Shown here one piece after another: positions 25,740 through 50,534 of a DNA stretch of 64,000 nt. Every line of letters starts with the position of its first letter. The first letter of the stretch is position 1. Source of the stretch: a bacterium HR15 (GTDB taxonomy: Bacteria; Armatimonadota; Fimbriimonadia; Fimbriimonadales; GBS-DC); the NCBI GenBank assembly GCA_002898555.1, contig BEHR01000001.1, positions 1-64,000 on the forward strand, written 5' to 3'. The translations under genes were made by a program, and so were the position numbers. The notes beneath the pieces are model-generated. The model was given only the letters and a program-made list of their open reading frames with translations, had not been told where the DNA came from and did no database searches.

Positions 25740-25791
25740 CGCCTCTTCCTGCTGAGCCAAAAGTCGGAGAAAAAAAATCACCCTTTTGGAC

Positions 25792-25822
25792 TTGACACAA
25801 GGGGAGAACTATCAGGTACACT
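25792..25822 (+). promoter_or_regulatory. Possible promoter of the island's first gene
   Basis: TTGACA at 25792-25797 and TACACT at 25817-25822, spacer 19 bp, 38 bp upstream of the ATG. Confidence 0.35.
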
Positions 25823-25859
25823 CTCAGCCAAGCCTCAATACACAGGGGGTGCCAAAGAA

Positions 25860-27944: not shown

Positions 27945-27962
27945 AAACAGGAGGTGTCTCTC

Positions 27963-28976: not shown

Positions 28977-29001
28977 ACCCTGACTGATTTGCTTGCGCCG
29001 A

Positions 29002-29379
29002 GCATCCGTTGGGTGTGCCGGCGATAGGGGAGAATGAGTTTGTATGGAGCGGAGGTAGCCCGGCAACGCTGGTCATTCCTGCGCGGGCATTAGGGTATAC
29101 TTGGGGCTGGGAACCTGACCTGAGCTGGATAGCGGAGGAGACGGTGTTTCGCGTAGAGCCTGAGATACCGAGCGACGATACGAAGCCGGGGGAGCGCACG
29201 GTGGCGCGTGGGCGCGAACTGGTGGCACAGAGTTTAGAGGGGCAGACCGGGGGGTATGTGGATGATTTGCTCTATCGGAGTAAACATCTGCCGCCGCACA
29301 ACAGCGATTTTGGCAAGAAGCGGGTTGTGTTTGAGGTGGAGGACAAGGTGGACTATGCAGAGATAGAGGTGTTTTATCC
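29002..29379 (+). repeat. 378-bp duplicated segment, copy 2
   Basis: Copy of 26732-27109. It begins 25 nt after the stop of the preceding gene, with no start codon or ribosome site of its own. Confidence 0.92.
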
Positions 29380-30157
29380 GGCGGAGGCAAGCAATCACCC
29401 GCCTGGAGGACGTGGCTGTAGTGGTCGGTTCCTGATAGATATAAATACTTTCCGTTTGATAGCCTGCGAATGCAATGCACATGTTGAGCCTGAAAATTGG
29501 TTTTATTACTACTCTCAGGTATATGGTGCCTCGGATGTTTGGTATGCGAAGGGGGAGACAACCCCTTATATGCTTGGGCTGACTTGCATGGGCACCAGAC
29601 CTGGTACGGGAGAGCGTGTAGCTCAAATCTATATACTGCCGTCTACCAGTCCTTGCCGAGTGGCTCTACCAGGCTTAGAGGAGGCTCATTCCACACACTT
29701 GCTAATACCTATCTTTAGATGTCAAAACAGAACTATCGAATTCACAAGACGCTTTTTGTGCGTGGCAGGAATTCACAAATTTATCGCGGTAGTAGAGCAT
29801 GAAAGAGTTCACAAGAAAATGTATGATGAAGGCAATCTCTATCCATCAGATGATTCATGTCCTGATAGAGATAACGACGGTCTTTGTGATAGGTGGGAGG
29901 ACGAAAACGGGATTGATTCAACGACGCCCCAAACGGTTCCTCCCTTCCCCGATTCTGAGCTGGTGGCGTACATTATTTCATATGGAAAGGTACTCGACGC
30001 CAAAGAAAAGTGGAAAGAAGATTGGGCAACTTGTGGGCTTCAGTTCGGCATTCCTCCATCCCCCTTCCCCTGGGCTTATACCGATATCAATGCAGGAAAC
30101 CGTTCAATTAGCCCACCACAGGGTAATATATTGAAAGCCTTACCAGCATGTAGATAG
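29009..30157 (+). CDS. Truncated HExxH metallopeptidase-like cassette without a proper start
   Basis: The frame opens at 28988 and runs for ~385 codons; TTG 29009 is only the first possible start. It lacks the ~290-residue N-terminal part and signal peptide of the paralogue at 25,860. The first ~120 residues are almost identical to that protein; the rest is homologous but diverged: VVEHERVHKK (HExxH at ~264), DRDNDGLCDRWEDENG, PPSPFPW. Looks like an orphan C-terminal cassette. The next helical-repeat gene starts 20 bp later. Confidence 0.55.
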   Translation: MGVPAIGENEFVWSGGSPATLVIPARALGYTWGWEPDLSWIAEETVFRVEPEIPSDDTKPGERTVARGRELVAQSLEGQTGGYVDDLLYRSKHLPPHNSDFGKKRVVFEVEDKVDYAEIEVFYPAEASNHPPGGRGCSGRFLIDINTFRLIACECNAHVEPENWFYYYSQVYGASDVWYAKGETTPYMLGLTCMGTRPGTGERVAQIYILPSTSPCRVALPGLEEAHSTHLLIPIFRCQNRTIEFTRRFLCVAGIHKFIAVVEHERVHKKMYDEGNLYPSDDSCPDRDNDGLCDRWEDENGIDSTTPQTVPPFPDSELVAYIISYGKVLDAKEKWKEDWATCGLQFGIPPSPFPWAYTDINAGNRSISPPQGNILKALPACR

Positions 30158-30177
30158 GGTTAACGGAGGAGACAGCG

Positions 30178-31182
30178 ATGAGAGCGAGTCGAAGATGGGA
30201 TTTGAACCGATGGCGTATCCTTTGGGGAGTGACCCTCTTGTGCAGCGCCCCGAATGCACCTGCTCAGATTCCCTCCGATGAGGTGAACATGGATTCACTG
30301 GTATGTCAGCTGCGTACTATTCGCGAGGCAGGGCGACTGCGCGACCAATCTCAGGTAACACGACTACTTGATAACCTCACAAATCCTCGGGCCGGCGCTT
30401 TTACGATAATAAAGGTCGATTTCGGCTACATTGCCCCCTTTGCCTATCATCTACAGGTTGCCTCGCTCGTTGCATTAGCCCGAATTGCCGATGCCTCGTC
30501 TCTTCCTGCCCTGGAAAAACTGCGGGAAGAGCAGTGCTGTAAAAGCTTACCACATCTGGAACCCACCATCGCTCGCATCAGAGCGGAGCTTGCATATCCC
30601 ACCCCGAAGAAACAAGAAGAATGGCGCGAGAAGGTTCAACGATTTATAGACCTATCTGGGGTGTCTTTAGATGAGTTGATACGAGGCACTTCACCACAAG
30701 CAAGGGTCTGCCTGCAATATATAGCTGAGATGGCTGCTGTCGCCTATGAGCAGGGTTATCATCAAGCCTTTGCCGATCTGGTAAGTCAGGGGATTCGGCT
30801 GGAAGCAGATTTTCGAGCAAACCTGATCTTGCATCTGACTTATCGCACACCGAAACAGCGGGTTGAGTGGCTTATGAGCCAGCTGAAGGCGTCCAATGCC
30901 ACCACTCACCATACATACTATGTTATTCAAGCATTGGCTGATTGCGGTGATTCTGGACTGAAGGCAATTCTTGAATGGTTCGAAGAACTACGACAAACTG
31001 CGGGTGTGGAAACACACTCTTTTGACAAAGTTTCTCTACGCCATTGTCTGCTTGCTCTGTGCGCGTTTGATAAACCGGAAGCCAAAAGGGCGGTTAAGGA
31101 TGTGCTTAGCCAGCAAGTCATATCCGATGTTTCGAATGTAGCCCGGGTCGACTGTCCCTATGTTTTCGTTTCTGACTTCTAA
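30178..31182 (+). CDS. Secreted helical-repeat protein (paralogue 2)
   Basis: 334 residues. Signal peptide MRASRRW...LLCSAPNAPAQ, then repeats with YHLQVASLVALARIADASSLP, TIARIRAELAYPTPKK, EWREKVQRFIDLSGVSLDE matching paralogues 1 and 3. GGAGGAGAC precedes the ATG. No enzyme motif. Clearly diverged from paralogue 1 in protein sequence, in parallel with the diverged peptidase C-termini, which fits co-variation. Confidence 0.65.
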   Translation: MRASRRWDLNRWRILWGVTLLCSAPNAPAQIPSDEVNMDSLVCQLRTIREAGRLRDQSQVTRLLDNLTNPRAGAFTIIKVDFGYIAPFAYHLQVASLVALARIADASSLPALEKLREEQCCKSLPHLEPTIARIRAELAYPTPKKQEEWREKVQRFIDLSGVSLDELIRGTSPQARVCLQYIAEMAAVAYEQGYHQAFADLVSQGIRLEADFRANLILHLTYRTPKQRVEWLMSQLKASNATTHHTYYVIQALADCGDSGLKAILEWFEELRQTAGVETHSFDKVSLRHCLLALCAFDKPEAKRAVKDVLSQQVISDVSNVARVDCPYVFVSDF

Positions 31183-31202
31183 GAAACTGTGTGAGAAGGG
31201 AG

Positions 31203-31427
31203 ATGGAGTATAATCACGGTATGAGGTCCCAACCAATCTATCCCTCTGACCCAACACCCCAAGAGTGGGGCGGGATAAAACCCGTCCTCAAAGGCGCCCT
31301 CTATGGACGCAAACGCAAGTCCATCGGCGCACCCTGCCAATACAGCCTCTACAACCTGTTGCAAGGAATGCTGCTTAAACAGCTGCTTATAGTCCATGCC
31401 AGTGCCCATAAAATTCAGGAGGTATAA
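31203..31427 (+). pseudogene. N-terminal remnant of an IS5-type transposase
   Basis: The frame reads YPSDPTPQEWGGIKPVL, then YGRKRKSIGAPCQYSLYNLLQGMLLKQLL, close to the common IS5-family N-terminus (YPSDLTDAEWALIEPLL ... GRKRK ... NAILYLLRTGCQWRML). It stops after ~70 residues without the DDE domain. It lies in the spacer between paralogues 2 and 3. No terminal repeats could be seen. Confidence 0.5.
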
Positions 31428-31433
31428 CAGGCG

Positions 31434-32558
31434 ATGCAGACTTTCACCTGGATCTCTGTGGCTGTCTTAATGGGGTTTCTCCCATCCGCTCATGGAGGGC
31501 TACCAGCAATGAACCCTGTGCAAGAACCTGCTGCTGCCACGCCACAGAAAACACTCGAGAGCCTTACTACGCATCTTCGCAAAGCAGACCAGCACACGAG
31601 ATTGAACGCCTCAGATTACGATGCGCTTATCTGGCAAGTACGCCAAATCGGATTGCAGCGGGAGCGTCAGCGATGGACATCCCTGCTCAATACACTCCAC
31701 CCAAAGGTTTTGGAGGCAGTGGATACCACTTCGGCAACCAGACGGGGACGGTTCCACTTACAAGCGGCGGTCTTGATGGCTTTGGGGCGATTAGGCAACC
31801 CTGAATCGATAGCCCCCTTAGAACATCTGAAAAAGCATCTTGACCCCTACTTCCGCCGCGAGATGCTCCCTGTAGTGATTGCTCGCATCCACGCGGAGAG
31901 CCAGGTGCCTACCCCTGCAAGCGCCGCTGCATGGCAAGAGAAAGCCTCTTTGTTCCTATCGAAGGCAGGTCTCTCGCTCAATGAGGCAATTGCGGCTCTG
32001 GAAATCTATGGGGAGCGTAGCCGCACGTGGCCGCCTGACAATCTGCTGGAGGCGCCGCGCGGAGTCATTGCCTTACGGATGCTGGCAGAGATGGCAGGCG
32101 AAGCTTTCGCAAATGGAGTACCTAATGCCTTTCAGTTGCTTGAGGGGTTGGGGAAAGACCTGGTGGAAAAAGACTCCATTCTCTGGCTTCGGATACAGCT
32201 GGGGAAAAGAACTTCTGCCGAGCGCATTCCGTGGCTTATCAATTACTTGTTGCAAGATGGGGTTCAAACGATTGAAGATAGGTTCTTGCAGCAGGTGTTG
32301 GTGGACTGCGGGGAACAAGCGGTTCCTGCACTGGTGGCAAAGATTGAAGTGCTGGAGCAGGGTGAACAAGTATCCTCAACCTATCGGCTTCACCTTGATC
32401 TCCTATTGGAGACGCTGTCCGTTTTCGACTCGCCGAAGGTTTTCCAAATCTTGGAGCGATTATGTCGACATCCTGACAGCTATATATCCGATGCTGCGCG
32501 GACATATCTTGCACGGAAACAGCGAGGTGAAAAGCCGACCTTTGTAAGTTGGCTATAA
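31434..32558 (+). CDS. Secreted helical-repeat protein (paralogue 3)
   Basis: 374 residues with signal peptide (MQTFTWISVAVLMGFLPSAHGG). Same repeat family as the two preceding paralogues: FHLQAAVLMALGRLGNPES, VVIARIHAESQVPTPASAAAWQEKA, GLSLNEAIAAL. It lacks an adjacent peptidase gene; an IS5-type remnant lies in front of it, so the partner may have been lost. AGGAGG lies upstream. Ends just before the right-hand direct repeat. Confidence 0.65.
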   Translation: MQTFTWISVAVLMGFLPSAHGGLPAMNPVQEPAAATPQKTLESLTTHLRKADQHTRLNASDYDALIWQVRQIGLQRERQRWTSLLNTLHPKVLEAVDTTSATRRGRFHLQAAVLMALGRLGNPESIAPLEHLKKHLDPYFRREMLPVVIARIHAESQVPTPASAAAWQEKASLFLSKAGLSLNEAIAALEIYGERSRTWPPDNLLEAPRGVIALRMLAEMAGEAFANGVPNAFQLLEGLGKDLVEKDSILWLRIQLGKRTSAERIPWLINYLLQDGVQTIEDRFLQQVLVDCGEQAVPALVAKIEVLEQGEQVSSTYRLHLDLLLETLSVFDSPKVFQILERLCRHPDSYISDAARTYLARKQRGEKPTFVSWL

Positions 32559-32666
32559 CGGGACGCTCTCAGCCACCTCGATTTCCTCGCAGCTGCTTAG
32601 CCGCTGTTCTAAAAAGGCTTTCAGCAGGGGGTCGCGCGTCACAATCACCACTTTTCGCTTCGACAT
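32553..32666 (-). pseudogene. 5' fragment of the LuxR-type regulator
   Basis: Encodes MSKRKVVIVTRDPLLKAFLE and ~18 further residues almost identical to the gene at 25,375 and then runs out at VPL; the helix-turn-helix is missing. Confidence 0.85.
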
Positions 32667-32701
32667 AAGCGCACCTCGAAATATTCCTTCGCCATGCAAG
32701 C
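32565..32701. repeat. 137-bp direct repeat, right copy
   Basis: Counterpart of 25603-25739, same orientation. Confidence 0.9.
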
Positions 32702-32751
32702 AGCTCTCCACAGCGTGCGCATGGAGGTATACTCCAAAGTGGGTAAGCCAC

Positions 32752-34082: not shown

Positions 34083-35141
34083 ATGCGTACCTTAGAACAC
34101 TTTAGGGATGGCACGATGAGTGCCCTGAAGAAAGGATGCGTTCGCGTTCTGAGTGTCGCGTTGTTGTATGCTGGACTGTCTCTGCCCAGCCACGCCCAAA
34201 TCTGGGGCGTCAAAGCACCTGATACTGCGTGGTACACCCCGCGACGCTGGTTGCTTTTCTGGTTCCATGAGGATGGTTCCGGGATTACCTTCGTGGGCGA
34301 TATACAGGGAGCGACTAAGATAGACGGGCTTGCCCTGTCGCCCCAGCACGGGCTGCTGGCGTTTCAGAACGACGGGGATCTGTATCAGTTCAGGGGCAAC
34401 AACTCGCGTTTGGTGCGGATTGACCCAGCGACGGCTCAGGTGACTGTGATTGGCAGTTGGCTTGCTGGGCGTTCCATTCACGGCGCCGCATTTGACCTAC
34501 AAGGTCGTTTGTGGGCAGTGGATGTGCTTCAAGGCGAGTTGCTGCAGATTGACCCGACGAATGGCAATATCATTACAAGCGTACCGCTCAGTTATCAAGG
34601 CAATCGGATCTATCCATCCGTTGCCACAGATATCGCCTTTGACCGCGATGGCGTCGCCTACTTGTGCGATTACATTCCTTCGCCGCCTTATGGGGTGAAA
34701 TATTATCGGGTTGATATGCAGACGGGTGTGCTGACCTTGTTGCACACGGATACACAGGCGGTGCCAGGAGGTTTAGGACCAGGAGTCGTCGGGTTGGCAT
34801 TTTCGTTGCGTGCGCCTGCGGATCGGCTGTTCATATTCGACGGTAACGGCGACGATGATATCTGGTATTATGATATGAACAGTGGCTGGCCGCGCGTTTA
34901 CATGTATGATGTATTGAGCGATAGCTACAATGGCGGCCCTGGTGACTTAGCCAGCGTCATGCAGTGCGCTTCTGCGGACGGCGATGTGGATAACGACGGC
35001 TGCGTGGACGATGCCGACCTGTTGCAGGTTCTATTCGCGTTTGGGGCTTCGGGTCCTAATGACGCGGATGTGAGCTGCGATGGTGTGGTGAATGATGCCG
35101 ACCTCCTGATTGTGCTGTTCCACTTTGGCAACGGTTGTTGA
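34083..35141 (+). CDS. Secreted beta-propeller-like protein with dockerin-like tail
   Basis: 352 residues. Signal peptide (VLSVALLYAGLSLPSHAQ). Mature part reads like an NHL/SMP-30-type propeller: LVRIDPATAQVTVIG, IHGAAFDLQGRLWAVD, LLQIDPTNGNIITSVP, DIAFDRDGVAYLCD. C-terminus: GDVDNDGCVDDADLLQVLF and SCDGVVNDADLLIVLFHFGNGC, two calcium-loop repeats ending in Cys. AGGAGGTG upstream of the ATG. Probably extracellular. Confidence 0.8.
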   Translation: MRTLEHFRDGTMSALKKGCVRVLSVALLYAGLSLPSHAQIWGVKAPDTAWYTPRRWLLFWFHEDGSGITFVGDIQGATKIDGLALSPQHGLLAFQNDGDLYQFRGNNSRLVRIDPATAQVTVIGSWLAGRSIHGAAFDLQGRLWAVDVLQGELLQIDPTNGNIITSVPLSYQGNRIYPSVATDIAFDRDGVAYLCDYIPSPPYGVKYYRVDMQTGVLTLLHTDTQAVPGGLGPGVVGLAFSLRAPADRLFIFDGNGDDDIWYYDMNSGWPRVYMYDVLSDSYNGGPGDLASVMQCASADGDVDNDGCVDDADLLQVLFAFGASGPNDADVSCDGVVNDADLLIVLFHFGNGC

Positions 35142-35981: not shown

Positions 35982-38636
35982 TCACACCACCACATTTACC
36001 AACTTGCCCGGCACGACGATTACTTTGCGCGGGGTTTTGCCCTGCAGGTGCGCCTGCACGCGCGGGCTTGCCAACGCCAAGCGCTCCATCGCCTCGCGCG
36101 AGATGTCCGCAGGCACTGTTATCTTGTCTCGAACCTTGCCGTTTACCTGCACCACCATTTCGAACATCTCGGCGCGGGCGAGGTTCTCGTCGTAGTCAGG
36201 GAAGCGCTGCTGCAAAGTGAAGCCTTCAAAGCCGAATGCCTCCCACAACTCGTCGGCGATGTGCGGCGCGAAGGGCGACAGCGCCACGATGAAACACTCC
36301 ACCGCCTCGCTGACCACCGCCATACAGTCCGCACAGCACATCCCTGTGTTCGCCTTGCGCCAATAGTCTTCCAAGTCGTTGAGCCATTCTATCAGCGTGG
36401 CGACCGCCGTGTTGAACTTGAAGTCGGGGATGTCGCTGTGCAGTTTCTTCAGGCTGGCGTGGGTGCGCTGACGCATCTGGCGCGAGGCGTCGTCGAGCCG
36501 TGCATGCGTTTCAGGGGTCAATATTTCGCGCCAGTCCCGAAGGAAGCATGCCCGCACCTCACGCATCAGTCGCCAGAGACGATTTAGGAAGCGGTGCATC
36601 CCTTTCACGCCCTGCTCCTCCCATTGGATAGCGGTATCGAAGGGGGCGACGAACATCTCATATAGGCGCAGCGTGTCCGCGCTATACCGCTCCACAATCT
36701 CGTCGGGTGTGACGACATTGTATTTGGATTTAGACATCTTTTCCCAGACCCAGATCAGCTGCTCGCGTTCGGCTTCGCTCATCTGCTCCAGTTGGTCGCG
36801 GCGTACCAAGATGCCGATCTCGCCTGCACTCAGGATCTCGTCTTCGCGGGGCGGGCGATAGGGCGTCAGCGCCAGCACCATCCCCTGATTGCGCAGGCGA
36901 TAGAACGGTTCCTGCACTGGCGAGATCCCGGCATCATAGGCGACCTTTGTCCAAAAGCGGGCATAGAGCAGGTGCATCACCGCATGCTCTGCACCACCGA
37001 CATAGTAGTCCACCGGCATCCAGTAGCGCACTTTTTCCTGGCTGAACGGCTCCTTGTCGTTGTGTGGGTCGCAAAAGCGGAAGAAGTACCAGCTGCTGCA
37101 GGCGAAGCCGCCCATCGTGTCGGTTTCGCGTCTGGCAGGCTGTCCGCACTGGGGGCAAGAGGTATTCACGAACTCTGGAATGCGGGCAAGGGGCGACTCG
37201 CCGGTGCCCGACGGCTGATACTGCTCCACATCGGGCAGCAGCACGGGCAGCTGTTCTTCGGGCACGGGCACTTCGCCGCAATGCTCGCAGTACACTATCG
37301 GGATTGGTGCGCCCCAGTAGCGTTGACGGCTGATTAGCCAATCGCGCAGGCGATACTGCACCTTGCGCTGTCCGATGCCACGCGCCTCGAACCAGTCGGC
37401 GAGCCGTTCCATCCCCTCGCGGTTCGGCAGCCCGCTGAACTCACCGGAGTTGACCATGATGCCATCGCCTGTGTAGCAGGGAGGGATGCCCTCACCTCCT
37501 GACCCCCCCTGCCACGCTGCGGGAGCGGGGGAAGCTCCTTCGGGCACGATAACCACTTTAATCGGCAGCCCATATTTCAGGGCAAAATCGTAGTCGCGTT
37601 CGTCGTGGGCGGGCACTGCCATAATCGCGCCCGTGCCGTAGGTCATCAGCACATAGTCGGCGACATAGATGGGTACGGGTTCGCCGTTCACGGGGTTGAT
37701 GGCGTACGCGCCGGTGAAGACGCCTGTGCGCTCGCGTTCTGCCGCCAGACGCGTGCGCTCGTCCAGGCGACGCGCTGCCTCGCGATAGGCGTTGATCTCA
37801 TGGCGATGCTCAGGCGTGGTTATTTCATCCACCAGCGGATGTTCGGGCGCCAGCACGGCGAAGGTCATGCCGAACACGGTGTCGATGCGCGTGGTGAAGA
37901 CGCGGAACTTCAGGTCGGGGTGTCCCTGGATCTGCATTTCGAACTCCACGCCTTCGCTGCGCCCGATCCAGTGGCGTTGCATCTGTTTGATGCCTTCGGG
38001 CCAATCCAGCGCGTCGAGGTCATAGAGCAGGCGGTCGGCATATTCGGTAATCTTGAAGAACCACTGGGGCATTTCGCGTTTCTCGACGAGTGTGGCGCAT
38101 CGCCAGCACTTGCCCCCCTCTACCTCCTCGTTCGCCAGCACCGTCTTACAGGATGGACACCAGTTGACGAGGGCGTTCGCCCGATAGGCTAACCCTCGCT
38201 TATAAAGCAGCAGGAACCACCACTGCGTCCAGCGATAATATTCGGGCGTGCTGGAGTTGATTTCGCGCTCCCAATCATAGGACAGCCCGATGAGATTCAT
38301 CTGCCGCTTGTAATTGGCGATATAGCGGGGAACGGTGTATTTGGGATGCAAACCTTTGTTGATGGCTTCATTCTCAGCGGGTTGTCCGAAGGCGTCCCAG
38401 CCCATCGGGTGCAGCACATTGTAGCCGCGCATGCGCATATAGCGGGCGAGCGTGTCGGCGGGGATGTAGTTGCGGCAGTGTCCCACACTCAGCCCGTCGC
38501 CTGAGGGATAGGGGAAGAATTCCAGCACATAGCACTTGGGCTTGCTGGGATCTTCCTCGGTCCGAAAAAGTTTTGCCTCACGCCACCGCTGCTGCCACTT
38601 CGGTTCGATTTGTTTGGGCTCGTAGTGTTCCTGCAT
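35982..38636 (-). CDS. leuS: Leucyl-tRNA synthetase
   Basis: 884 residues. Class I synthetase charging tRNA-Leu. Contains YPSGDGLSVGHCRNYIPAD (HIGH box variant), the zinc-type ALVNWCPSC...CWRC, editing-domain TRIDTVFGMTF and GTGAIMAVPAHDERDYDFA, and KMSKSKYN. An unusual insertion EGASPAPAAWQGGSGGEG in the region before YTGDGIMVNSG is encoded by a palindromic repeat like that in fliO. The start is near-leaderless: TACAAT ends 10 bp before the ATG. The first ~26 codons plus promoter recur upstream twice. Confidence 0.97.
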   Translation of the reverse strand: MQEHYEPKQIEPKWQQRWREAKLFRTEEDPSKPKCYVLEFFPYPSGDGLSVGHCRNYIPADTLARYMRMRGYNVLHPMGWDAFGQPAENEAINKGLHPKYTVPRYIANYKRQMNLIGLSYDWEREINSSTPEYYRWTQWWFLLLYKRGLAYRANALVNWCPSCKTVLANEEVEGGKCWRCATLVEKREMPQWFFKITEYADRLLYDLDALDWPEGIKQMQRHWIGRSEGVEFEMQIQGHPDLKFRVFTTRIDTVFGMTFAVLAPEHPLVDEITTPEHRHEINAYREAARRLDERTRLAAERERTGVFTGAYAINPVNGEPVPIYVADYVLMTYGTGAIMAVPAHDERDYDFALKYGLPIKVVIVPEGASPAPAAWQGGSGGEGIPPCYTGDGIMVNSGEFSGLPNREGMERLADWFEARGIGQRKVQYRLRDWLISRQRYWGAPIPIVYCEHCGEVPVPEEQLPVLLPDVEQYQPSGTGESPLARIPEFVNTSCPQCGQPARRETDTMGGFACSSWYFFRFCDPHNDKEPFSQEKVRYWMPVDYYVGGAEHAVMHLLYARFWTKVAYDAGISPVQEPFYRLRNQGMVLALTPYRPPREDEILSAGEIGILVRRDQLEQMSEAEREQLIWVWEKMSKSKYNVVTPDEIVERYSADTLRLYEMFVAPFDTAIQWEEQGVKGMHRFLNRLWRLMREVRACFLRDWREILTPETHARLDDASRQMRQRTHASLKKLHSDIPDFKFNTAVATLIEWLNDLEDYWRKANTGMCCADCMAVVSEAVECFIVALSPFAPHIADELWEAFGFEGFTLQQRFPDYDENLARAEMFEMVVQVNGKVRDKITVPADISREAMERLALASPRVQAHLQGKTPRKVIVVPGKLVNVVV
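37487..37531 (-). repeat. Palindromic repeat element inside leuS
   Basis: On the minus strand: C-run, GCTCCCGCAGCGTGGCAG, G-run, TCAGGAGGTGAGGGCAT. Same architecture as the elements in fliO (5299) and near 45650. It is translated in frame. Confidence 0.6.
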
Positions 38637-38658
38637 AGCGGGGAATATTGTACCATGC
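38561..38658 (-). repeat. leuS promoter/5' copy A (native)
   Basis: 98 bp covering the -10 box (38647-38652), the ATG (38634-38636) and the first ~25 codons. Copies B and C below are nearly identical. Confidence 0.9.
38647..38652 (-). promoter_or_regulatory. leuS -10 box (TACAAT), near-leaderless start
   Basis: TACAAT on the minus strand ends 10 nt before the ATG, so the transcript should begin a few bases ahead of the start codon. The box is conserved in both duplicated copies. Confidence 0.5.
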
Positions 38659-38725
38659 GCACCCGCAAGTGCGTCGGGGCTACACCGTCATCAACGCTCA
38701 TGCTACCAGCCCATCAGAAGCGCGT

Positions 38726-39547
38726 TCATACTCGTTCATCCTCCGCCATAGACTTTAGCTGCTTCAAGGTGACCCGCCAATCGTAGTACTGCTTCTCACT
38801 TGTTTGGAGCAGTTCCAGAGCCAGTTTCTCAACAAGTAGCGGATACTGTGGAGAAAATACAACGAAACCGTTATCAAGCCAACGCTGTAGCTTGCTGGAG
38901 CAGAAGTAGAAGAGTTCTGCCTTCTCACGAGTATGAGCCGTTCTGGAATGGAACATACTGTGGTACCAATCCTTCGCGGATCTCAAAGTGTAAGGAATTT
39001 CTAGGCTCAAACGACCTGCATGCTGTTGGGCAAAGCGTCTCCGAAGTCGTGATTCGCTCCTATAGGTCTCCTTCTTTATTTGGATAATAACTTGTTGCCC
39101 GTTCAGGTTGACTAATGCGTCCACGCCTTGAATGTCGAGTTCTGGGGATGCTTCCAGAGGCGATTTGCAGTAAGACTTCCATAAATAGCAAAAGTGAAGC
39201 TGCGTCCAGACAGAAACGATTGTACGATAGATACGAGCTTTGAAACCTAAGTAAACAAAATCGCGTGAGCAACCCCAAAAGAATTTTGCAATAAATTCGT
39301 CTAGAGGCTCCAGATGGCTTTTCCACCACTCGCTGAAAAGTTCTTCATATCCAGGAAATTGAGCATCTTCTTCAGTCCAGTAGTGTTTGTATATATCCGG
39401 CAATGGATTTAGGCGCCTTGGTAAATCTTGCTCTACCGTCTTAATCGACATAAGCTCTTGCCTGTACTTTTCGATAGGAACTTCCGATAAAAATCGCTCG
39501 AAGTCCATAGCTTTCCGATATGCATGTGAGTTTTTGGGGCGAATCAT
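38726..39547 (-). CDS. TaqI-type type II restriction endonuclease (predicted TCGA)
   Basis: 273 residues, the size of TaqI (263). Similar features: YRQELMSIKTVEQDLPRRLNPLPD near the N-terminus and the catalytic PD-(D/E)XK-like core LDIQGVDALVNLNGQQVIIQIKKE (D138, D143, K158/K159). Together with the adjacent M.TaqI homologue it predicts cleavage at T^CGA; this follows from homology, not from the sequence alone. Starts with ATGA overlap after the methyltransferase. Confidence 0.88.
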   Translation of the reverse strand: MIRPKNSHAYRKAMDFERFLSEVPIEKYRQELMSIKTVEQDLPRRLNPLPDIYKHYWTEEDAQFPGYEELFSEWWKSHLEPLDEFIAKFFWGCSRDFVYLGFKARIYRTIVSVWTQLHFCYLWKSYCKSPLEASPELDIQGVDALVNLNGQQVIIQIKKETYRSESRLRRRFAQQHAGRLSLEIPYTLRSAKDWYHSMFHSRTAHTREKAELFYFCSSKLQRWLDNGFVVFSPQYPLLVEKLALELLQTSEKQYYDWRVTLKQLKSMAEDERV

Positions 39548-40902
39548 ATTAATCCTCCTCCAAACAGGTTTGTTCTGGAGTCTAAAAATACTCCTGATGG
39601 CACAGGAACGACTTCAAGCATTGCCTTGGTCAAATGAGGCGTAAAGTCTCGATACACTGCTTGTAGGTACTCCTGTATCCGCTCACTGTTCAGGTATCTT
39701 TCCAAAGCGAGCCAGTCAACCCGAACACCTTCCAAAGGTAGCAGGTGGTATTCCTCGCGCCAGGGATAGCACTGCCAATCTACCGCACATACTAAGCGAG
39801 TACCCTTAGTATGTCCCACTACAAGGTGCGGAACACCGTAAAATGAACGCAGATTCGGAGCATCTTCACGACGCATCCACCAGCCACTGTAGCAAGTCTC
39901 ATAGTCTATGTGTCCAGCTGATAAATTGCGCCCTGTCAGTACGGGCACATCGCCTGCTTGAGGCGCGGTGCGAATCAATCCGCTTTTACGAAACTCAGGA
40001 CTCCGCGCTGCGAAGCGGATATGCATGAGTTTTCCCAGAGGAACGCCTGATTCTTCAAAAGCGGTCCACTCGTTCGTCGCGAATCGTATAAGCCCTCCAA
40101 AGTAGTTTGGATCTTTCACATGCAGATGCCTGTGAATGAGCGAATCGCCGGTGCACGATTCCCAAGTGCCTCCCGACATATCGTATAGTGATAAACCGCG
40201 ATCATTGAGGGTGAATCGTAGGATGACCACTGAAACATTCACTTTAGGAAAAACTCTACCGACATAGAATACCTCAAGTCGCCCCCGTTCCGCAAGAAAT
40301 CGTCGCAGTAAGGCGAAATCATCCAAGATTAGCCATGTAGTAGGTACAACGAATACCAACCTACCGCCCGGACGCAGAAGGAGCACTGCTTTTTCAATGA
40401 ACGCTCCGTACAGATTGTATTTACCTTTCCAAGTAGTGAAGGACTGCTTGTATTCTGCTTTGCGTTCTTTCAGAAGATGTATTGGGTAATGTGAAGCATC
40501 TCCTACAATTCCGTAAGGTGGATTTCCAATCACAATATCGAATCTTTCATGGGTGTTCCACAGTAGGAAGTCCGCATGAATTAACTGAATGTAGTCTGGC
40601 AATGTATGCTTGGCCCAGGCAATAGTTGCCTCATTGATTTCAACGCCCACCAAGTGATGATAGGTTCCATAGTGTCGAGCGAAGCTGCTGAGGAATCGCG
40701 CGTCACCACACGCCGGCTCAAGCACTTTAGAAGGTTCTTGTCCTTCTGGCTTCGCAAGCTGTACCATGAAGTCCACCAGCGCTGCTGGAGTTGAAACGAA
40801 TCCGAGTGCTCGCTGGATATCCGAAGTTGTAAGCTGCAGGTCCGACGCTTCGTGTGCAATTAGTTCAAGCTGATTAGGCTCCAAAAATTGTAGGCGATTC
40901 AT
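39544..40902 (-). CDS. TaqI-type N6-adenine DNA methyltransferase (predicted TCGA)
   Basis: 452 residues. Motif I LEPACGDARFL (61-71), acceptor motif IV GNPPYGIVGDASHYPIH (NPPY 127-130), WKGKYNLYGAFIEKAV, FVVPTTWLILDDFALL and C-terminal target-recognition HIRFAARSPEF, VPVLTGRNL, YPWREEYHLLPLEGVR, all strikingly like M.TaqI. It protects TCGA by methylating the adenine. ATG 40902 lies 5 nt after the stop of the leuS-derived leader ORF (copy B); AAGAG may be a weak ribosome site. Confidence 0.93.
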   Translation of the reverse strand: MNRLQFLEPNQLELIAHEASDLQLTTSDIQRALGFVSTPAALVDFMVQLAKPEGQEPSKVLEPACGDARFLSSFARHYGTYHHLVGVEINEATIAWAKHTLPDYIQLIHADFLLWNTHERFDIVIGNPPYGIVGDASHYPIHLLKERKAEYKQSFTTWKGKYNLYGAFIEKAVLLLRPGGRLVFVVPTTWLILDDFALLRRFLAERGRLEVFYVGRVFPKVNVSVVILRFTLNDRGLSLYDMSGGTWESCTGDSLIHRHLHVKDPNYFGGLIRFATNEWTAFEESGVPLGKLMHIRFAARSPEFRKSGLIRTAPQAGDVPVLTGRNLSAGHIDYETCYSGWWMRREDAPNLRSFYGVPHLVVGHTKGTRLVCAVDWQCYPWREEYHLLPLEGVRVDWLALERYLNSERIQEYLQAVYRDFTPHLTKAMLEVVPVPSGVFLDSRTNLFGGGLI

Positions 40903-40907
40903 CTCTT

Positions 40908-41099
40908 CTACACCCCCATCAACTCCTCCTTGAGATACCGTTCGTGTTGCTGCTGCGGCAGGGTGCGCCAGATGAGGAACTGCTTGCACAGGATATTCAA
41001 GAAGCGGTGATTGACGCGCTCTGTCCGAAAAAGTTTTGCCTCACGCCACCGCTGCTGCCACTTGGGTTCAATTTGTTTGGGTTCGTAGTGTTCCTGCAT
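40908..41099 (-). CDS. leuS-derived leader ORF (copy B), truncated LeuRS N-terminus
   Basis: 63 residues: the first ~26 match LeuRS (MQEHYEPKQIEPKWQQRW), then the frame continues as unrelated sequence (RVNHRFLNILCKQ; LPQQQHERYLKEE) and stops at 40908, 5 nt before the methyltransferase ATG. Unlikely to be functional as a synthetase; likely a translated leader. Confidence 0.6.
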   Translation of the reverse strand: MQEHYEPKQIEPKWQQRWREAKLFRTERVNHRFLNILCKQFLIWRTLPQQQHERYLKEELMGV

Positions 41100-41121
41100 A
41101 GCGGGGAATATTGTACCATGC
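41024..41121 (-). repeat. leuS promoter/5' copy B
   Basis: 98 bp; contains the -10 box at 41110-41115 and ATG at 41097-41099. It abuts the stop codon of the second methyltransferase and precedes the TaqI-type cassette. Confidence 0.92.
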
Positions 41122-42896
41122 TACGGTTTTTGGAGGAGCAGAGCGGTCTCATAGTAGGCGTCGAGGGAACGCGGGCGTGCAACCGAGTTCTGTTTGTGCA
41201 GTTCCACATGAATGGGTTCGACTAACTGTAGTTTGGCTTGTTGGGCAAGTTGAGCAGTAATATCGGCGCTTTCGACAACGCGTACGATTTCGCGGGAGCG
41301 ATAGCGGTAGAACACATGGCGTCGAGCCACAACATAAGCACATTTGCCGCCTGGTTTCAGGACGCGCTGGATTTCGCGCAGCGATTCGCGGAGGTCGGCG
41401 AAATAGCTGGCAGTGGCGGCGGCTTTAACGCAGCGTGTGGGATCGTTCTGCATCCACATCACGACTTCCTGTGCAAGTGGAGGCAGGTCAGCAATTGTAT
41501 CAGCGCGTTGTACGGAGCCGATTTGCCCGGCTTCAAGCGTGTCTACAGCGTCGGGCGTAATCAAGCCAAGAGCGATCATCGCATAGGCTTTGCTTTTGAG
41601 GTAGCTTTCTCGCCCTGACGAAGCGGGCATGTAAGGTGGACTGGTTACGACGCATTCCACGCTTGCGTCCTTCAGGGGCAGTTGGCGGGCGTCTCCTTGC
41701 AATACGGTGATGGGCGCAGGCACGACGCCTGTGTGCGCGCGGAGCCACTGCCAAGCAGTTATCGCGCATGAGAGGTACTGCAGATTCTCGAGAAACATCT
41801 GGCGCACACTGCGCGGCTGAATGGTGAGGGAAAATCTTCCGTAGCCCAATCCCAGAAAACGGAATTTGAACTTGCGTGAAAGGGCGTCGCTAAGAGCGAT
41901 GTGCAGCGGGCTGCACGGGGGAAGCCAACGCAGGGCGCTTAAAATATTGGCGACATCGGTCTCTACCTCGCGTAATATCGGTTCAGGCAAGCGATGGCGT
42001 ATAAATGCAGGTGTTAGGTTGTACGATGCTGGCGTTTCAGCTATCTCGAACAGACTGCCTTGCCCCTTTTCGGAAGCGTCCAAGCGTGTTAGTACAGTGG
42101 CGACAGCGTCTGCAATAGCGCCTGTGTCTGACAAAAGTTGCGCTTTCGCCCTCGCAATTGCAACCGAGAGCGGGTCGATATCGACGCCTATGGCAGGCAG
42201 CCCCATCACCGCGGCTTCCACCAGCGCCGTTCCACTGCCTGCGAAGGGATCCAGCACTGTTGCCCCGCCACAGAGGTTCAAGAATGCGCGCGCCATTCTT
42301 GGAAAAAACTTTGCCTTATACACATGCAGCCCGTGAAAGAGATGTCCGGTGGTCTGCTTCGCTTGCAGAAGAGTGCGTGCGCTTTGGGGGAGTTCACTGG
42401 GAACCTCGGCAACAATTGCTGCCCGAAGATACTCCAGCGTAGCGCCCACCTCTTTGGGAGCCTTTGCCCGCCGCGCAATTACATCAGACCACTCCGCCAT
42501 CGCATTGAAGGGTACAAACATAAATGCAAGCCTCTGATTCACTTGACGCACACGCACTAAGGAGCTTGGCAGCAGCGCGAGCGCGCTTCGTGCAGCAACA
42601 TCATCCTCCACGATGCCGAACACCTGTTCGCAAAACGAAAGTCGCCAAAAGAGTCTGAGCAAGTCTACAGACTCGGCTTGACCCAGATAGCCCACTACAC
42701 CTTGCCGATGAAGTGCAATATCTTTGGGCAGCAACCATCCCGCTTGCTGCCAGGAGTAAAGAAATTCAGCCCCGCGCGGTTCGAGAGTACACTGAATTAA
42801 GGCAATCAGCTCTCGCCTTGCGAGGTCTAAATCGCCATCCAGCTCGATATTGTTGCGCAACTTAAAAAAAAGCGTCCAGCGGGCGTTGGAAATCAT
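41121..42896 (-). CDS. DNA amino-methyltransferase of the second R-M system
   Basis: 591 residues. Motif I VLDPFAGSGTALVEAAV (216-223 core) precedes the catalytic motif IV ECVVTSPPYMPASSGRESY (TSPPY 418-422), so the order is FGG before SPPY. This order and the long N-terminal region are unlike the TaqI-type enzyme. The base (N4-C or N6-A) cannot be decided, nor the site. The ATG overlaps the endonuclease ORF's stop by ATGA; the gene ends exactly at copy B. Confidence 0.85.
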   Translation of the reverse strand: MISNARWTLFFKLRNNIELDGDLDLARRELIALIQCTLEPRGAEFLYSWQQAGWLLPKDIALHRQGVVGYLGQAESVDLLRLFWRLSFCEQVFGIVEDDVAARSALALLPSSLVRVRQVNQRLAFMFVPFNAMAEWSDVIARRAKAPKEVGATLEYLRAAIVAEVPSELPQSARTLLQAKQTTGHLFHGLHVYKAKFFPRMARAFLNLCGGATVLDPFAGSGTALVEAAVMGLPAIGVDIDPLSVAIARAKAQLLSDTGAIADAVATVLTRLDASEKGQGSLFEIAETPASYNLTPAFIRHRLPEPILREVETDVANILSALRWLPPCSPLHIALSDALSRKFKFRFLGLGYGRFSLTIQPRSVRQMFLENLQYLSCAITAWQWLRAHTGVVPAPITVLQGDARQLPLKDASVECVVTSPPYMPASSGRESYLKSKAYAMIALGLITPDAVDTLEAGQIGSVQRADTIADLPPLAQEVVMWMQNDPTRCVKAAATASYFADLRESLREIQRVLKPGGKCAYVVARRHVFYRYRSREIVRVVESADITAQLAQQAKLQLVEPIHVELHKQNSVARPRSLDAYYETALLLQKP

Positions 42897-43639
42897 CGTC
42901 GCCTACCTCCTAAGGCTGAATAAAGCCGCTCCAGGCTGAAAGCGCGCTTTAGCGTCTCACATCGGATCCACGATTTGGTCAAGGAAAACAACATATCATA
43001 GAAGGGCGACAAATCGCTCGCGCGAACGCGCCTCCACTCTGGGTCGGATTGGTCTTCAGCGAGCTTGGCTTCGTGTGTCCACAAGGCGTCTTCAAAGCCC
43101 TCAAGATATTGGGTGTAGTGAACGACGGGATGAATGTTAGAGAGCAGAGCCACGCGGATACGCCCCTGGGCACATCGCGTCCGATATTCCTCCGTGAGCT
43201 TGAGTGATTGATAAAGACCTTTTTTGATATCGTCTGTTCGATCTAACCCTGGAGCGTCTTTTGAGTCGTCAACTCCACTGCCACAGCCAAAGGTAAACCA
43301 GCGGAGATGTCCTTCCTTGCTCCAGCGGCTTTCGTAACCCACGAACATCTGTCTCCAGACCTCGATCACTGCCTTTATATCTTCTATCATTTGGTCTTGT
43401 TTCCTGCCGAGCAATGACGGGATCAGAGAAACCCTGCCGTTGCGAACAGTAGCATGCAGCGGGAAAGTTTTACCACTACCAAGCAGATAGAGGTGCAGAG
43501 GTTGTGTTTTCCATGTAGGCACATCGGTCGCTTTGTGGGTAATAACCTCCTGTGGTTCTCCATCTACCTCTGTGGTGAGAGGTTCCTCATAAAAACACAT
43601 ATCGGAAATGCCGTGAGTGGGGATGCCTTCAGTTCGCAT
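42893..43639 (-). CDS. C-terminal fragment of the second restriction endonuclease (frameshifted)
   Basis: Open frame for the C-terminal part (EEPLTTEVDGEPQEVITHKATDVP, then QPLHLYLLGSG...). It overlaps the N-terminal fragment by ~75 bp in another frame. The first codons up to ~43590 are an out-of-frame continuation of the other fragment; the true product would join at the A5/T5 run at 43591-43595. Its stop overlaps the methyltransferase ATG. Function as nuclease C-domain is inference. Confidence 0.6.
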   Translation of the reverse strand: MRTEGIPTHGISDMCFYEEPLTTEVDGEPQEVITHKATDVPTWKTQPLHLYLLGSGKTFPLHATVRNGRVSLIPSLLGRKQDQMIEDIKAVIEVWRQMFVGYESRWSKEGHLRWFTFGCGSGVDDSKDAPGLDRTDDIKKGLYQSLKLTEEYRTRCAQGRIRVALLSNIHPVVHYTQYLEGFEDALWTHEAKLAEDQSDPEWRRVRASDLSPFYDMLFSLTKSWIRCETLKRAFSLERLYSALGGRRR

Positions 43640-44184
43640 AGGACAGCATGTTCGGCATTGAACAGTATCATATCAATCTCGCCGCGTCCAGACGCCAAAA
43701 GACGAACATTCCACCCTGTGCGGGTTCGCTGACAAAGCTCTGCTAAAATTGCAGCCAGACAGAGGGATGCGTACCTGCCGATGCTATCTGAGGCAGGTTT
43801 ATGTGCCACAGTAGGCAAATCGTCTGTCCGCCCACAGCGTGGGCAGCTCCGCATATAAGGGTAGAAACTCGCTATAGGCTCCTGTGGGCAATACAGCCAC
43901 TGAGTGTGGGTACATCTCTCTGCGTACAAGAGGCTCATACAGAGGTCAAAAACCGCGCCTAACGCGATGCCCAGCGCTTCGGGACTCGGGATTGTCTGGC
44001 GCTGCACTAAGACCTTTAGACAGTCGAAGATTCTGGATACAAGCAGAGTGAGGTCAGGTCTGAGCGCTTCGGCAGAGGTGGATGCCTCATGAATGCGCCT
44101 TAGCTCAGGAGCAACCAAGCAGCCACACTCCCCTGAAAAACATATAGGGAGTGAGTTCGGCTGCATACGAGGAACCTGTTTCAT
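43564..44184 (-). CDS. N-terminal fragment of the second restriction endonuclease (frameshifted)
   Basis: Starts at ATG 44184, whose bases overlap the TGA of the leuS leader ORF (ATGA). Carries CPQEP...SCPRCG (a zinc-ribbon-like Cys set) and the nuclease core GRGEIDMILFN...AVLCELKASPL (E-I-D ... E-x-K), a PD-(D/E)XK signature common in type II enzymes. After ASPLTAFPICVF the frame leads to a stop, while the other frame continues with EEPLTTEVDG; one extra base at the T5 run would restore it. Confidence 0.65.
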   Translation of the reverse strand: MKQVPRMQPNSLPICFSGECGCLVAPELRRIHEASTSAEALRPDLTLLVSRIFDCLKVLVQRQTIPSPEALGIALGAVFDLCMSLLYAERCTHTQWLYCPQEPIASFYPYMRSCPRCGRTDDLPTVAHKPASDSIGRYASLCLAAILAELCQRTRTGWNVRLLASGRGEIDMILFNAEHAVLCELKASPLTAFPICVFMRNLSPQR

Positions 44185-44258
44185 TGAAATCTGCACCTTG
44201 CTTGCCACCGCTGCTGCCACTTGGGTTCAATTTGTTTGGGTTCGTAGTGTTCCTGCAT
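44181..44258 (-). CDS. leuS-derived leader ORF (copy C)
   Basis: 25 codons: MQEHYEPKQIEPKWQQRW followed by QARCRFQ and TGA. The TGA overlaps the ATG of the endonuclease gene (ATGA), a typical arrangement for translational coupling. Confidence 0.65.
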   Translation of the reverse strand: MQEHYEPKQIEPKWQQRWQARCRFQ

Positions 44259-44276
44259 AGCGGGAATATTGTACCA
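44204..44276 (-). repeat. leuS promoter/5' copy C
   Basis: 73 bp, nearly identical to copies A and B (closer to B), with one base lost in the G-run. -10 box at 44268-44273, ATG at 44256-44258. Confidence 0.92.
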
Positions 44277-44296: not shown

Positions 44297-45454
44297 CTAA
44301 CCCATTCTCAGCAGCACCTGCGCCGCAAGCATTTGCCAAAAGCGCGTCCGCTTTTTCATTTCGTCTGTGGAGTGACGATGATGCTCTTTGTACCAGCACC
44401 AGTCTCCCAAACGCCGCGGGTCATTCTTGTCCATTTCTGCCCAAGTGCCCCAGCGGTCTCGGGGAAGTGAGTAATATAACTCCTCGAGTTGTTCAGCGAT
44501 TCGCCGGATGTGTGGTCTAACATGATAATGTAACTCCTCGAGTAGTTCAGCGATTTGCCGGGTGATTCGTCTAAAATGATAAAGGTAGTACCAAAACTCG
44601 CCGTAAGACTCGAAATACCGTTCGCTTCCACCAATCGGCGGCCATGCGTAGAGTCGATTGGCCAACAGGTAGCCTTGGTACTCCGCTGGCTGGGTAGTGA
44701 TAAGCCGTTGCACATGGCGCGCCTCGATGCCGCTGAACTGCGAAAAGGCGATAAAGTTCGCGAAGCTCTCTTCGATCACGCGCCCCCACGCGGTATCGTA
44801 CACAGACTCACTGGGTGCATCCTCCGTGTCCATATAGGCGTGTCCCAGCTCGTGGTAGAGGACTTTGTCGAAGACGAGGTTCGGCTCCACACCCATGCGG
44901 TTTGCCCAGTCTATCACGCGCTCTGGGCAGATGAAGATGAGCGGCGTGTTCGCTGACCGATAGGCATCAACGGCGTCAGGTGCGGGTTGCGGTGTTCCCT
45001 GTGAGTTTATTTTAGACCACTGAGGTTTCGCGCTATGCCGCCCCAAATAAAGCCCAACGGGTGTAAATCGTATCCAGTAGGCGAAGGGGCTTGGCTCCTG
45101 CATGTCTGTAACCTCACCGCGCTGGATATCATCCCAAGCGCGCTCTATGGGGCTGATTTCTTCTTCTCTGCGGCGTTCGCGGTCGCGTTGCACCTCTTCC
45201 TGCTCCAGCGCGTCACGCAGTCGGCGTTGGACTGCGTTTTTGTTCAATCCGCGTTGCAGGGCAGGTGGGGCAACAGCGTCGATTTGCGCTTCGTTCACCA
45301 GAAACACGGGGATTTTCAGCGCCAGTTCCGCAATGCGGTCTTCCATGCGGGTATAGAGCGCTTCACGCGCGAGGTCTATCTGCTGCGCGGCGGCGGAGCC
45401 AAGGTTGTGAAACGCTATCGGTAGCGAACCCTTAATCTGTTTGCGTCGTGCCAT
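44297..45454 (-). CDS. HExxH metallopeptidase-like protein with tandem helical duplication
   Basis: 385 residues from ATG 45454 (AGGAGA upstream). HELGH at 201-205 (VLYHELGHAYMDTE) and, 23 residues on, VIEESFANF, a gluzincin-like E-E-x-x-A; this is a plausible zinc site. A long acidic/basic coiled region precedes it, and a ~60-bp duplication encodes RQIAELLEELHYH / RRIAEQLEELYYS near the C-terminus. No signal peptide. Substrate unknown. Its 3' end lies near copy C. Confidence 0.7.
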   Translation of the reverse strand: MARRKQIKGSLPIAFHNLGSAAAQQIDLAREALYTRMEDRIAELALKIPVFLVNEAQIDAVAPPALQRGLNKNAVQRRLRDALEQEEVQRDRERRREEEISPIERAWDDIQRGEVTDMQEPSPFAYWIRFTPVGLYLGRHSAKPQWSKINSQGTPQPAPDAVDAYRSANTPLIFICPERVIDWANRMGVEPNLVFDKVLYHELGHAYMDTEDAPSESVYDTAWGRVIEESFANFIAFSQFSGIEARHVQRLITTQPAEYQGYLLANRLYAWPPIGGSERYFESYGEFWYYLYHFRRITRQIAELLEELHYHVRPHIRRIAEQLEELYYSLPRDRWGTWAEMDKNDPRRLGDWCWYKEHHRHSTDEMKKRTRFWQMLAAQVLLRMG

Positions 45455-48899: not shown

Positions 48900-50534
48900 T
48901 TGAGTAGCGACCAAGCGGTGTGGGGGCTGGCGTATCGGAGCTACAGTCAGGATGATTCCTACTGGCTGGCGCGTGGACGCGGGCTGACCCGTCCGTCGGT
49001 CGCCTCGAATGTGGTGGGCGAAGGATGGCAGGTTGCCCTGCCCGAAGCAGCGAGCGCGATTGCCCGCGACCCTGCCAATCCCGACCTGTTCTATGTGGGC
49101 TGTTTGGACGGCTCGGTGCAACAAGTGTTGCTGCCCGACTTCACACCGATGGTGTTGATGGGGCATGCGGGGCTCAGCGGCACGCTGTTTGAAGTAGTGC
49201 AGAACCGCATCGCGACCTTTTTGACGAGCTATGGACCGGCGTTTCGCTGGTTCTATGATAGCGGCGTGGGTATTCGGCGTGCCGCGGTTGTGAACTTGAG
49301 CAACGGGCAAGTGGCGTCCAGCGCGATCCAGTGTAATGCGGATGGGTCCACAGGGTGCAATCCGTATGATGTGGGTATCAACGCGCTGATGCGTTTGTCG
49401 CCCTCGGGGAATGTGCTGTACGGCTATGAGGTGGGGAACAATCGCCTCACAGGCTGGAACGGCACGACGATGGCGCCGCTGTTCAACACCACGAGTTTCG
49501 GCTTGCACTGGTGGCCGGTCGGGTTGGATGATACACGCGTGGCGTTGCTGTATAACGAGGCGCGTGGCTCGTATCAGTTGGGGAGCCCGCCCGTGACCTA
49601 CTATCGGTATCGTCCTGTGATACGAGTCATCAAGTGGACGCCGACGCTGACGACGGAGGCGGTGCGTCCGCTGGATGAGAACACCGAGATGGGGTTCATT
49701 ATGCAGGATCCCAACCAGCATCCGAACTATCTTCAGGGGATGCGTTGGGATATGAACGCGACGCGTCGGGTAGCGGCGGTTTATGGAGCGCACTTTTACG
49801 ACCCGAACACGCCGAACGCCTATGAGCGGCGCATCTTGATTTTGCATCGCCCGAACCCGAATGATTGGAGCACTTGGGTGGTGCGCGAGGTGCTGCGTCA
49901 GGGCGTCGATTTTCCAGGTCTGGTCTATCCCACTATGGTCGTTTTTCACCCAAATGCGCCTGGGGTGCTGTATGTGGGCTTGAGCAACGGGCGGTTGCGG
50001 ATTTATCGTTTAGACGCGAACGGCAACTTGCTCAATCGGACGAACCCCGACGAGTTAGTGCCGACGCTGGGCACTTTAGGTCCTGTGTCGGCGATGGATG
50101 TGGGCAACTATGTGCTGAACGGGCTGAACTACACGGCGATTGTGTTTGGCGGTCCGGAGGGCTTATCGGTCTGGGTGGGCTTTGTGTGCCAGCCGGGCTG
50201 GCTGAACGAGGTGCATTTTTACAAGACCGATATTGCCTTTTTCCCGTCGGCAGGGATGGGGTATGTGCAAGTGGAGCAGCCCGATCCGAGCCAGCCGCCG
50301 TTTCTGGTGTACAGTAATGGGCTGGTGATGTCGGCGGCGCGCTTGGACAACCTGCCTGAGTTGCCCTGTCCGGAGGATGTGAACCGAGATGGTGTGGTCG
50401 ACGACGCGGATGTTTTGGAGGTGCTGTTTGCGTTTGGCGGGGAGGGGTATCGCCCTGCTGATGTGAACTGCGACGGTGTCGTGGACGATGCGGACCTGTT
50501 GCAGGTGCTGTTTGCCTTTGGGCAGCAGTGTTAG
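48900..50534 (+). CDS. C-terminal fragment of the interrupted giant propeller protein with dockerin-like tail
   Basis: 544 residues starting at a TTG inside the former reading frame. Propeller-like (RLSPSGNVLYGYEVG; GNGRL...). The C-terminus carries the dockerin-like pair VNRDGVVDDADVLEVLF and VNCDGVVDDADLLQVLFAFGQQC. Together with the N-terminal and middle fragments it would be about 1,210 residues, close to the paralogue at 50,611. Confidence 0.75.
   Translation: MSSDQAVWGLAYRSYSQDDSYWLARGRGLTRPSVASNVVGEGWQVALPEAASAIARDPANPDLFYVGCLDGSVQQVLLPDFTPMVLMGHAGLSGTLFEVVQNRIATFLTSYGPAFRWFYDSGVGIRRAAVVNLSNGQVASSAIQCNADGSTGCNPYDVGINALMRLSPSGNVLYGYEVGNNRLTGWNGTTMAPLFNTTSFGLHWWPVGLDDTRVALLYNEARGSYQLGSPPVTYYRYRPVIRVIKWTPTLTTEAVRPLDENTEMGFIMQDPNQHPNYLQGMRWDMNATRRVAAVYGAHFYDPNTPNAYERRILILHRPNPNDWSTWVVREVLRQGVDFPGLVYPTMVVFHPNAPGVLYVGLSNGRLRIYRLDANGNLLNRTNPDELVPTLGTLGPVSAMDVGNYVLNGLNYTAIVFGGPEGLSVWVGFVCQPGWLNEVHFYKTDIAFFPSAGMGYVQVEQPDPSQPPFLVYSNGLVMSAARLDNLPELPCPEDVNRDGVVDDADVLEVLFAFGGEGYRPADVNCDGVVDDADLLQVLFAFGQQC

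What the first reader, a model, noticed from the sequence alone, without database searches (positions are those of the whole stretch)
38561..44276. Two R-M cassettes each installed behind a duplicated leuS promoter and start
Copies B (41024-41121) and C (44204-44276) reproduce the leuS -10 box, ATG and first codons of copy A almost exactly. Each copy precedes a type II R-M cassette in leuS orientation, and the second methyltransferase ends exactly at copy B. This suggests repeated cassette insertion at the leuS 5' end, regenerating an intact leuS each time. Insertion with long target duplication is established for some R-M genes in other bacteria; a housekeeping synthetase start used as a landing pad and donated promoter is, as far as I know, not described.
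Basis: partly seen in the sequence, partly recalled or inferred. Interest (0 to 1): 0.85.

Follow-up and report, generated by a model that had tools for sequence, protein, structure and literature searches.

The report
Restriction cassettes behind duplicated leuS starts
In a hot-spring bacterium, two DNA-cutting defence cassettes sit one after the other in front of an essential gene; each lies between short copies of that gene's start, so the gene stayed intact while the cassettes probably borrowed its on-switch.

Summary
The repeats are real: three direct copies of the leuS start (C 73 bp, B/A 103 bp; 95-99% identical) flank two type II R-M cassettes and occur nowhere else in this Fimbriimonadales (Armatimonadota) genome. 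KatS3mg016 (G011) has only the outer cassette, with matching junctions and two copies: the intermediate expected if insertions duplicated their target. In both genomes the copies match their own leuS better than their counterparts in the other genome (10 diagnostic sites against 0), so gene conversion keeps them alike. Best reading: the known 'insertion with long target duplication' of R-M units, here stacked twice on an essential gene, survivors limited to duplications that rebuild leuS. Two refinements: each duplicated start opens a short frame ending at the cassette's first gene (ATGA overlap; TAG-5 nt-ATG), suggesting borrowed promoter and translational coupling; and the TaqI cassette carries 36 codons of the 3' end of another host gene (M28 peptidase-FtsX), whose stop codon is directly followed by R-M systems of three kinds in four relatives. 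A relative's CRISPR array holds the outer cassette attached to 104 foreign leuS codons. A non-R-M 7-kb cluster in this window shows the same architecture. No empty site was found for the first insertion; expression is untested.

The parts
35982..38636 (-). leuS, leucyl-tRNA synthetase, 884 aa, intact
   Evidence: PF13603 1.2e-64, PF00133 6e-40
38556..38658 (-). copy A: leuS's own promoter-start unit (extended -10 TGGTACAAT, 10-nt gap, ATG, 27 codons)
38726..39547 (-). cassette 1: R.TaqI-type restriction endonuclease, 273 aa; no relative in 113 genomes of the order
   Evidence: PF09573 2.9e-61; PADLOC REase_II 3e-76
39544..40902 (-). cassette 1: M.TaqI-like adenine methyltransferase (start ATG 40902)
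   Evidence: PF07669, PF12950; PADLOC MTase_II 6.9e-157
40908..41099 (-). leader reading frame from copy B: 27 leuS codons fused in frame to the last 36 codons of a M28-FtsX gene, stop TAG 5 nt before M.TaqI ATG
40911..41018 (-). remnant of the 3' end of the M28 peptidase-FtsX gene (82% nt to the G011 gene over 113 nt, 86% to this genome's own gene at C63 over 73 nt)
41019..41121 (-). copy B of the leuS 5' end, starting on the last base of the M2 stop codon
41121..42896 (-). cassette 2: type II DNA methyltransferase M2, 591 aa
   Evidence: PF01555 1.8e-9; PADLOC MTase_II 7e-23
42893..44184 (-). cassette 2: restriction endonuclease R2 (GEID...CELK motif), split here by a 1-nt frameshift near 43600; intact in G011 and G004
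44181..44258 (-). leader reading frame from copy C: 18 leuS codons + 7 codons; its stop overlaps the R2 start as ATGA, conserved in G011
44204..44276 (-). copy C of the leuS 5' end (promoter, ATG, 18 codons)
44297..45445 (-). upstream neighbour, putative metallopeptidase-like gene, also upstream of cassette 2 in G011

Best explanation
Two type II R-M cassettes entered the 5' end of leuS in separate events, each by insertion with long target duplication (first about 73 bp, then 103 bp). Because leuS is essential, only insertions whose duplication spanned the promoter, start codon and first codons could survive; each rebuilt an intact leuS on the right and left a truncated start on the left. The left copy most likely became the cassette's expression signal: a -10 box close to the ATG starts a short leader frame that ends on or just before the first cassette gene, so that gene can be translated by coupling. 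The repeats then recombined with each other, so gene conversion keeps them alike within a genome. Shown: copies, junctions, intermediate state, concerted evolution, leader frames, and the remnant of a second host gene at the cassette-1 end. Inferred: target duplication as the mechanism, order of insertions, expression from the copies.
For: Copies and junctions. G011 at the same locus has cassette 2 only, with two copies and the same left (TGGCAAGYAAGGTGCAGATTTCAATGAAACA) and right (CAAAAACCGTAGCATGGTACAAT) junctions. No TaqI REase elsewhere in 113 genomes of the order, so cassette 1 is the later arrival on parsimony. Concerted evolution: 10 sites where both G011 copies agree against all three window copies, none supporting position-wise orthology; window B and C are identical in the coding part while A differs at 3 sites. 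Copy C lies between genes of dS 0.3-0.5 but diverges like leuS (dS 0.83), as conversion from leuS predicts. Leader frames end at ATGA (both genomes) and TAG-5 nt-ATG. TA[CT]AAT boxes are enriched 6-12 nt before ATGs in this genome (22 of 53 in a 70-nt stretch), so (near-)leaderless starts are a real class. Only R and M genes, no integrase, transposase or inverted repeats of 30 nt or more. Same architecture in other inserts: 140-bp 5'-end duplication around a 6.8-kb cluster (25603-32704) and 167 bp around homologous genes in G003.
Against: No genome with the upstream neighbour next to leuS and a single leuS start was found, so the first duplication is not seen against an empty site. G011 could also be a post-excision state (recombination between B and A deletes cassette 1). 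dS differs along the locus (about 0.26-0.5 for flanking genes against a background of about 1.2-1.5), so the block has probably moved horizontally between genera and is not simply vertical. The B-cassette 1-A part is seen in a single assembly. No expression data.
Confidence: 0.7

Rival explanations
1. Homology-driven integration: cassettes travel linked to a donor's leuS 5' end (linear or circular DNA) and enter leuS by RecA recombination, leaving one donor and one recipient copy.
For: G004 holds cassette 2 attached to 104 leuS codons that are not its own (91% nt to G010/G016, 83% to its own leuS). Low dS of the block between genera suggests horizontal exchange.
Against: Cassette 1 carries the 3' end of another host gene (M28-FtsX) at its left edge and no leuS sequence beyond the duplication. 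Copies within a genome lack a donor/recipient split, unless conversion erased it.
Confidence: 0.15
2. Tandem duplication of the leuS 5' region came first, then the material between the copies was replaced by R-M DNA (promoter capture by rearrangement).
For: Short direct repeats have recombined in this genome; other local duplications are common, very roughly one per 50-60 kb.
Against: Needs two steps per cassette. No intermediate with bare tandem leuS starts in 18 family genomes.
Confidence: 0.1
3. Assembly artefact: chimeric joins at the repeated leuS start.
For: The window genome is a 72-contig draft; contig C63 ends inside the own M28-FtsX gene; the REase is frameshifted.
Against: The C-cassette 2-leuS part is confirmed independently in G011. 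The M28-FtsX remnant is 14% diverged from the own gene end, so it is not a mis-join of that gene. The repeats differ from each other.
Confidence: 0.05

Closest known systems
Insertion of R-M systems with long target duplication (Nobusato et al. 2000; described in PMC3874152 and PMC3031569)
   Same: R-M unit alone, no recombinase, flanked by long and variable direct repeats on the order of 100 bp
   Different: Here the target is the 5' end of an essential synthetase gene, hit twice in series; the duplicated piece is promoter plus start codon, opens a leader frame into the cassette, and is homogenised by gene conversion
Integrative elements that enter a gene's 5' end and regenerate it (e.g. SXT in prfC; own knowledge)
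   Same: Host gene is rebuilt by element-borne or duplicated sequence, and a new promoter can be involved
   Different: No integrase, no defined att core, cassette holds only R and M genes
TaqI type II R-M system of Thermus
   Same: R domain PF09573 and M with TaqI_C specificity domain
   Different: Located at leuS; carries 36 codons of a Fimbriimonadales M28-FtsX gene in front of M
IS-linked R-M movement (PMC3031569)
   Same: R-M gene pairs move and settle next to host genes; direct repeats allow amplification or loss
   Different: No IS element; host-gene termini (leuS start, M28-FtsX stop) are the junctions

Membership tests
R-M insertion with long target duplication | R-M genes flanked by direct repeats of target sequence on the order of 100 bp | tested here: met
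   73 and 103 bp copies, 94-99% identical
R-M insertion with long target duplication | Related genome with one copy and no cassette at the same site | tested here: inconclusive
   For cassette 1: G011 has a single copy where B-cassette 1-A lies (excision not excluded). For cassette 2: no genome keeps the upstream neighbour next to leuS without it
R-M insertion with long target duplication | Variable duplication length | tested here: met
   73, 103 (R-M) and 140, 167 bp (other clusters)
R-M insertion with long target duplication | No transposase or integrase, no terminal inverted repeats | tested here: met
   Only R and M genes between copies; no inverted repeats of 30 nt or more; shorter ones not examined
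Site-specific integrative element at gene 5' end | Element encodes a tyrosine or serine recombinase | tested here: not met
   No such gene between C and A
TaqI-type II R-M | R with RE_TaqI domain, M with TaqI_C domain, adjacent | tested here: met
TaqI-type II R-M | Cleaves and methylates TCGA | not testable with these tools
   needs assay or methylome
Type II R-M (cassette 2) | MTase plus PD-(D/E)XK-like REase | tested here: met
   PADLOC REase_II 2.5e-37 and MTase_II; fold matches weak, all E > 0.2, the top ones to PD-(D/E)XK nucleases; R frame broken in the window

The most novel reading that the evidence does not exclude
In thermophilic Fimbriimonadales, type II R-M cassettes lack promoters of their own and spread by docking at host-gene termini (leuS start, M28-FtsX stop). 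They carry away a piece of each host gene, are translated by coupling to a native or duplicated stub, and use the duplicated stub as a homologous arm for conversion, loss and transfer between genera.
Probability: 0.3. Interest if true: 0.75.

Novelty: new variant of a known kind. Interest (0 to 1): 0.55.

Why it matters
How small R-M units without recombinases move and get expressed in a new host is a long-standing question. This locus gives a probable before/after pair, two stacked events at one essential gene, repeats that convert, and a traceable former docking site, so the process can be tested by transcript mapping and long-read population data.

Tried and rejected
Empty site: upstream regions of leuS in eight relatives share nothing with this contig, and the upstream metallopeptidase-like gene occurs only in G000, G011, G009 (contig ends after it) and distantly in G008. 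Furuta 2010 is not held. R2 fold: model pLDDT 68, Foldseek matches all E > 0.2, used only as weak support. R.TaqI not found in plasmids or viral contigs. A 26-bp leuS-promoter-like match in G009 is probably just the promoter style of the group, not a fourth copy. Literature search for leuS together with R-M insertion returned nothing.

Full report
Observation. The three copies exist at the stated places and strand. A (38556-38658) is leuS's own start; B (41019-41121) is 96% identical over the same 103 bp; C (44204-44276) covers only the -10 box to codon 18. The genome has no further copy. Cassette 1 (B to A) is a TaqI-type pair; cassette 2 (C to B) is another type II pair whose REase is recognised by PADLOC in G011. 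The M2 stop codon touches copy B. The R2 frame is broken by one base in the window but intact in two relatives.

Relatives. In G011 (Fimbriimonadales bacterium KatS3mg016, BPGO01000002) the same metallopeptidase-like gene, copy C, R2, M2 and then leuS follow each other; cassette 1 is absent. Both junctions of cassette 2 match those in the window. This is the expected intermediate, although it could also arise by loss of cassette 1 through recombination between B and A. R.TaqI has no relative in the 113 genomes of the order, which favours a later arrival of cassette 1. The G011 assembly has apparent indel errors in leuS and the metallopeptidase-like gene, so its leuS was compared piecewise.

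Concerted evolution. Over the 73-bp core the window copies are 96-100% alike and the two G011 copies 92%, but copies compared between the two genomes are only 76-84% alike. At ten sites both G011 copies differ from all three window copies in the same way; no site groups the copies by position. In G011 the coding part differs at one site while the stretch between -10 and ATG differs at five, so the likeness is not a matter of promoter constraint. dS between the two genomes is about 1.2-1.5 at other single-copy loci where it could be measured, but 0.3-0.5 for cassette 2 and the metallopeptidase-like gene, 0.26 for a gene downstream of leuS and 0.83 for leuS (only about a dozen genes could be compared). 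The neighbourhood has therefore probably been exchanged between genera, and copy C, lying between low-dS genes, has leuS-like divergence. Conversion from leuS to C explains this.

Expression. The -10 box TACAAT, preceded by TG in window A, B, C and in G011 A, ends 9-10 nt before the ATG. TA[CT]AAT boxes are enriched 6-12 nt before ATGs in about 600 kb of this genome, so (near-)leaderless starts are a genuine class here, though Shine-Dalgarno starts dominate. The leader frame from C is 25 codons and its stop overlaps the R2 start as ATGA in both genomes. The leader from B is 63 codons and stops 5 nt before M.TaqI. Promoter donation and coupling are inferred, not measured.

A former docking site. 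The last 36 codons of the B leader match the C-terminus of a roughly 1530-aa M28 peptidase-FtsX protein found across the family. In G011 and G010 (HNH-like protein plus MTase; same kind), G004 (REase_II plus D12 MTase) and G008 (R.HaeII, PF09554 1.7e-110, plus MTase) an R-M system follows the stop codon of this gene directly; the HNH label rests on my reading of the cysteine/histidine pattern, since no profile confirmed it. G003, G001, G005 and G002 have none, and I saw none by eye in the loci from outside the family (those were not scanned with profiles). Cassette 1 thus probably sat at such a site before reaching leuS and brought the gene end along. The remnant is 14% diverged from this genome's own gene over 73 nt, so it is not a simple mis-join. 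What follows the own gene is unknown because contig C63 ends there.

Transport with leuS. In G004 a cassette-2 homologue is followed by 104 codons of a leuS start closest to G010/G016 (91% nt), not to G004's own leuS (83%). The piece lies between perfect CRISPR repeats.

Generality. In the same window a 140-bp duplication of a LuxR-type gene's 5' end (25603-25742, 32565-32704) flanks a 6.8-kb cluster of HEAT-like and unknown genes; relatives of these genes in G003 are flanked by a 167-bp duplication of a gene's 3' end. Long duplications at insertion points are therefore not special to R-M or to leuS in this group.

Verdict. The anatomy fits insertion with long target duplication, known for R-M units (PMC3874152, PMC3031569), with new features: an essential gene start as target, twice; conversion between copies; leader fusion; and a trace of a second host-gene terminus. 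It works like that process; membership is met on repeat length, variability and absence of recombinase, and inconclusive on the empty site. The missing empty site for cassette 2 and missing expression data keep confidence at 0.7.

Noticed in passing
L139/L140 (G004:C16:96149-105542): CRISPR array with 36-bp perfect repeats in which ordinary spacers (32-43 nt) alternate with segments of 1290, 3882 and 3785 bp; the third holds the cassette-2 R-M pair plus a foreign leuS start cut exactly at the repeat. Assembly artefact, recombination between repeats, or long-fragment acquisition are all open. Repeat absent from the other 17 family genomes.
   Followed up: partly
window 25603-25742 and 32565-32704: 140-bp direct duplication (96%) of the 5' end of a LuxR/GerE-type gene flanking a 6.8-kb cluster of HEAT-like and unknown genes; similar cluster in G003 flanked by a 167-bp duplication of a gene 3' end.
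   Followed up: partly
L203, L204, L205, L207: The stop codon of the M28 peptidase-FtsX gene is directly followed by R-M systems of three kinds in four family genomes.
   Followed up: yes
window 43600 region: One-base shortening of a T run breaks the cassette-2 REase frame; could be phase variation, decay or sequencing error.
   Followed up: partly
G003:C1:200630-207777 (L183): 7-kb element with a tyrosine-recombinase-like gene between two 169-bp direct repeats containing a tRNA gene, apparently an ordinary integrative element.
   Followed up: no
window 34083-35141, 48900-50534 and many other loci: Many proteins end in a shared dockerin-like C-terminus (DADLLxVLFAFG), repeated through the genome.
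   Followed up: no
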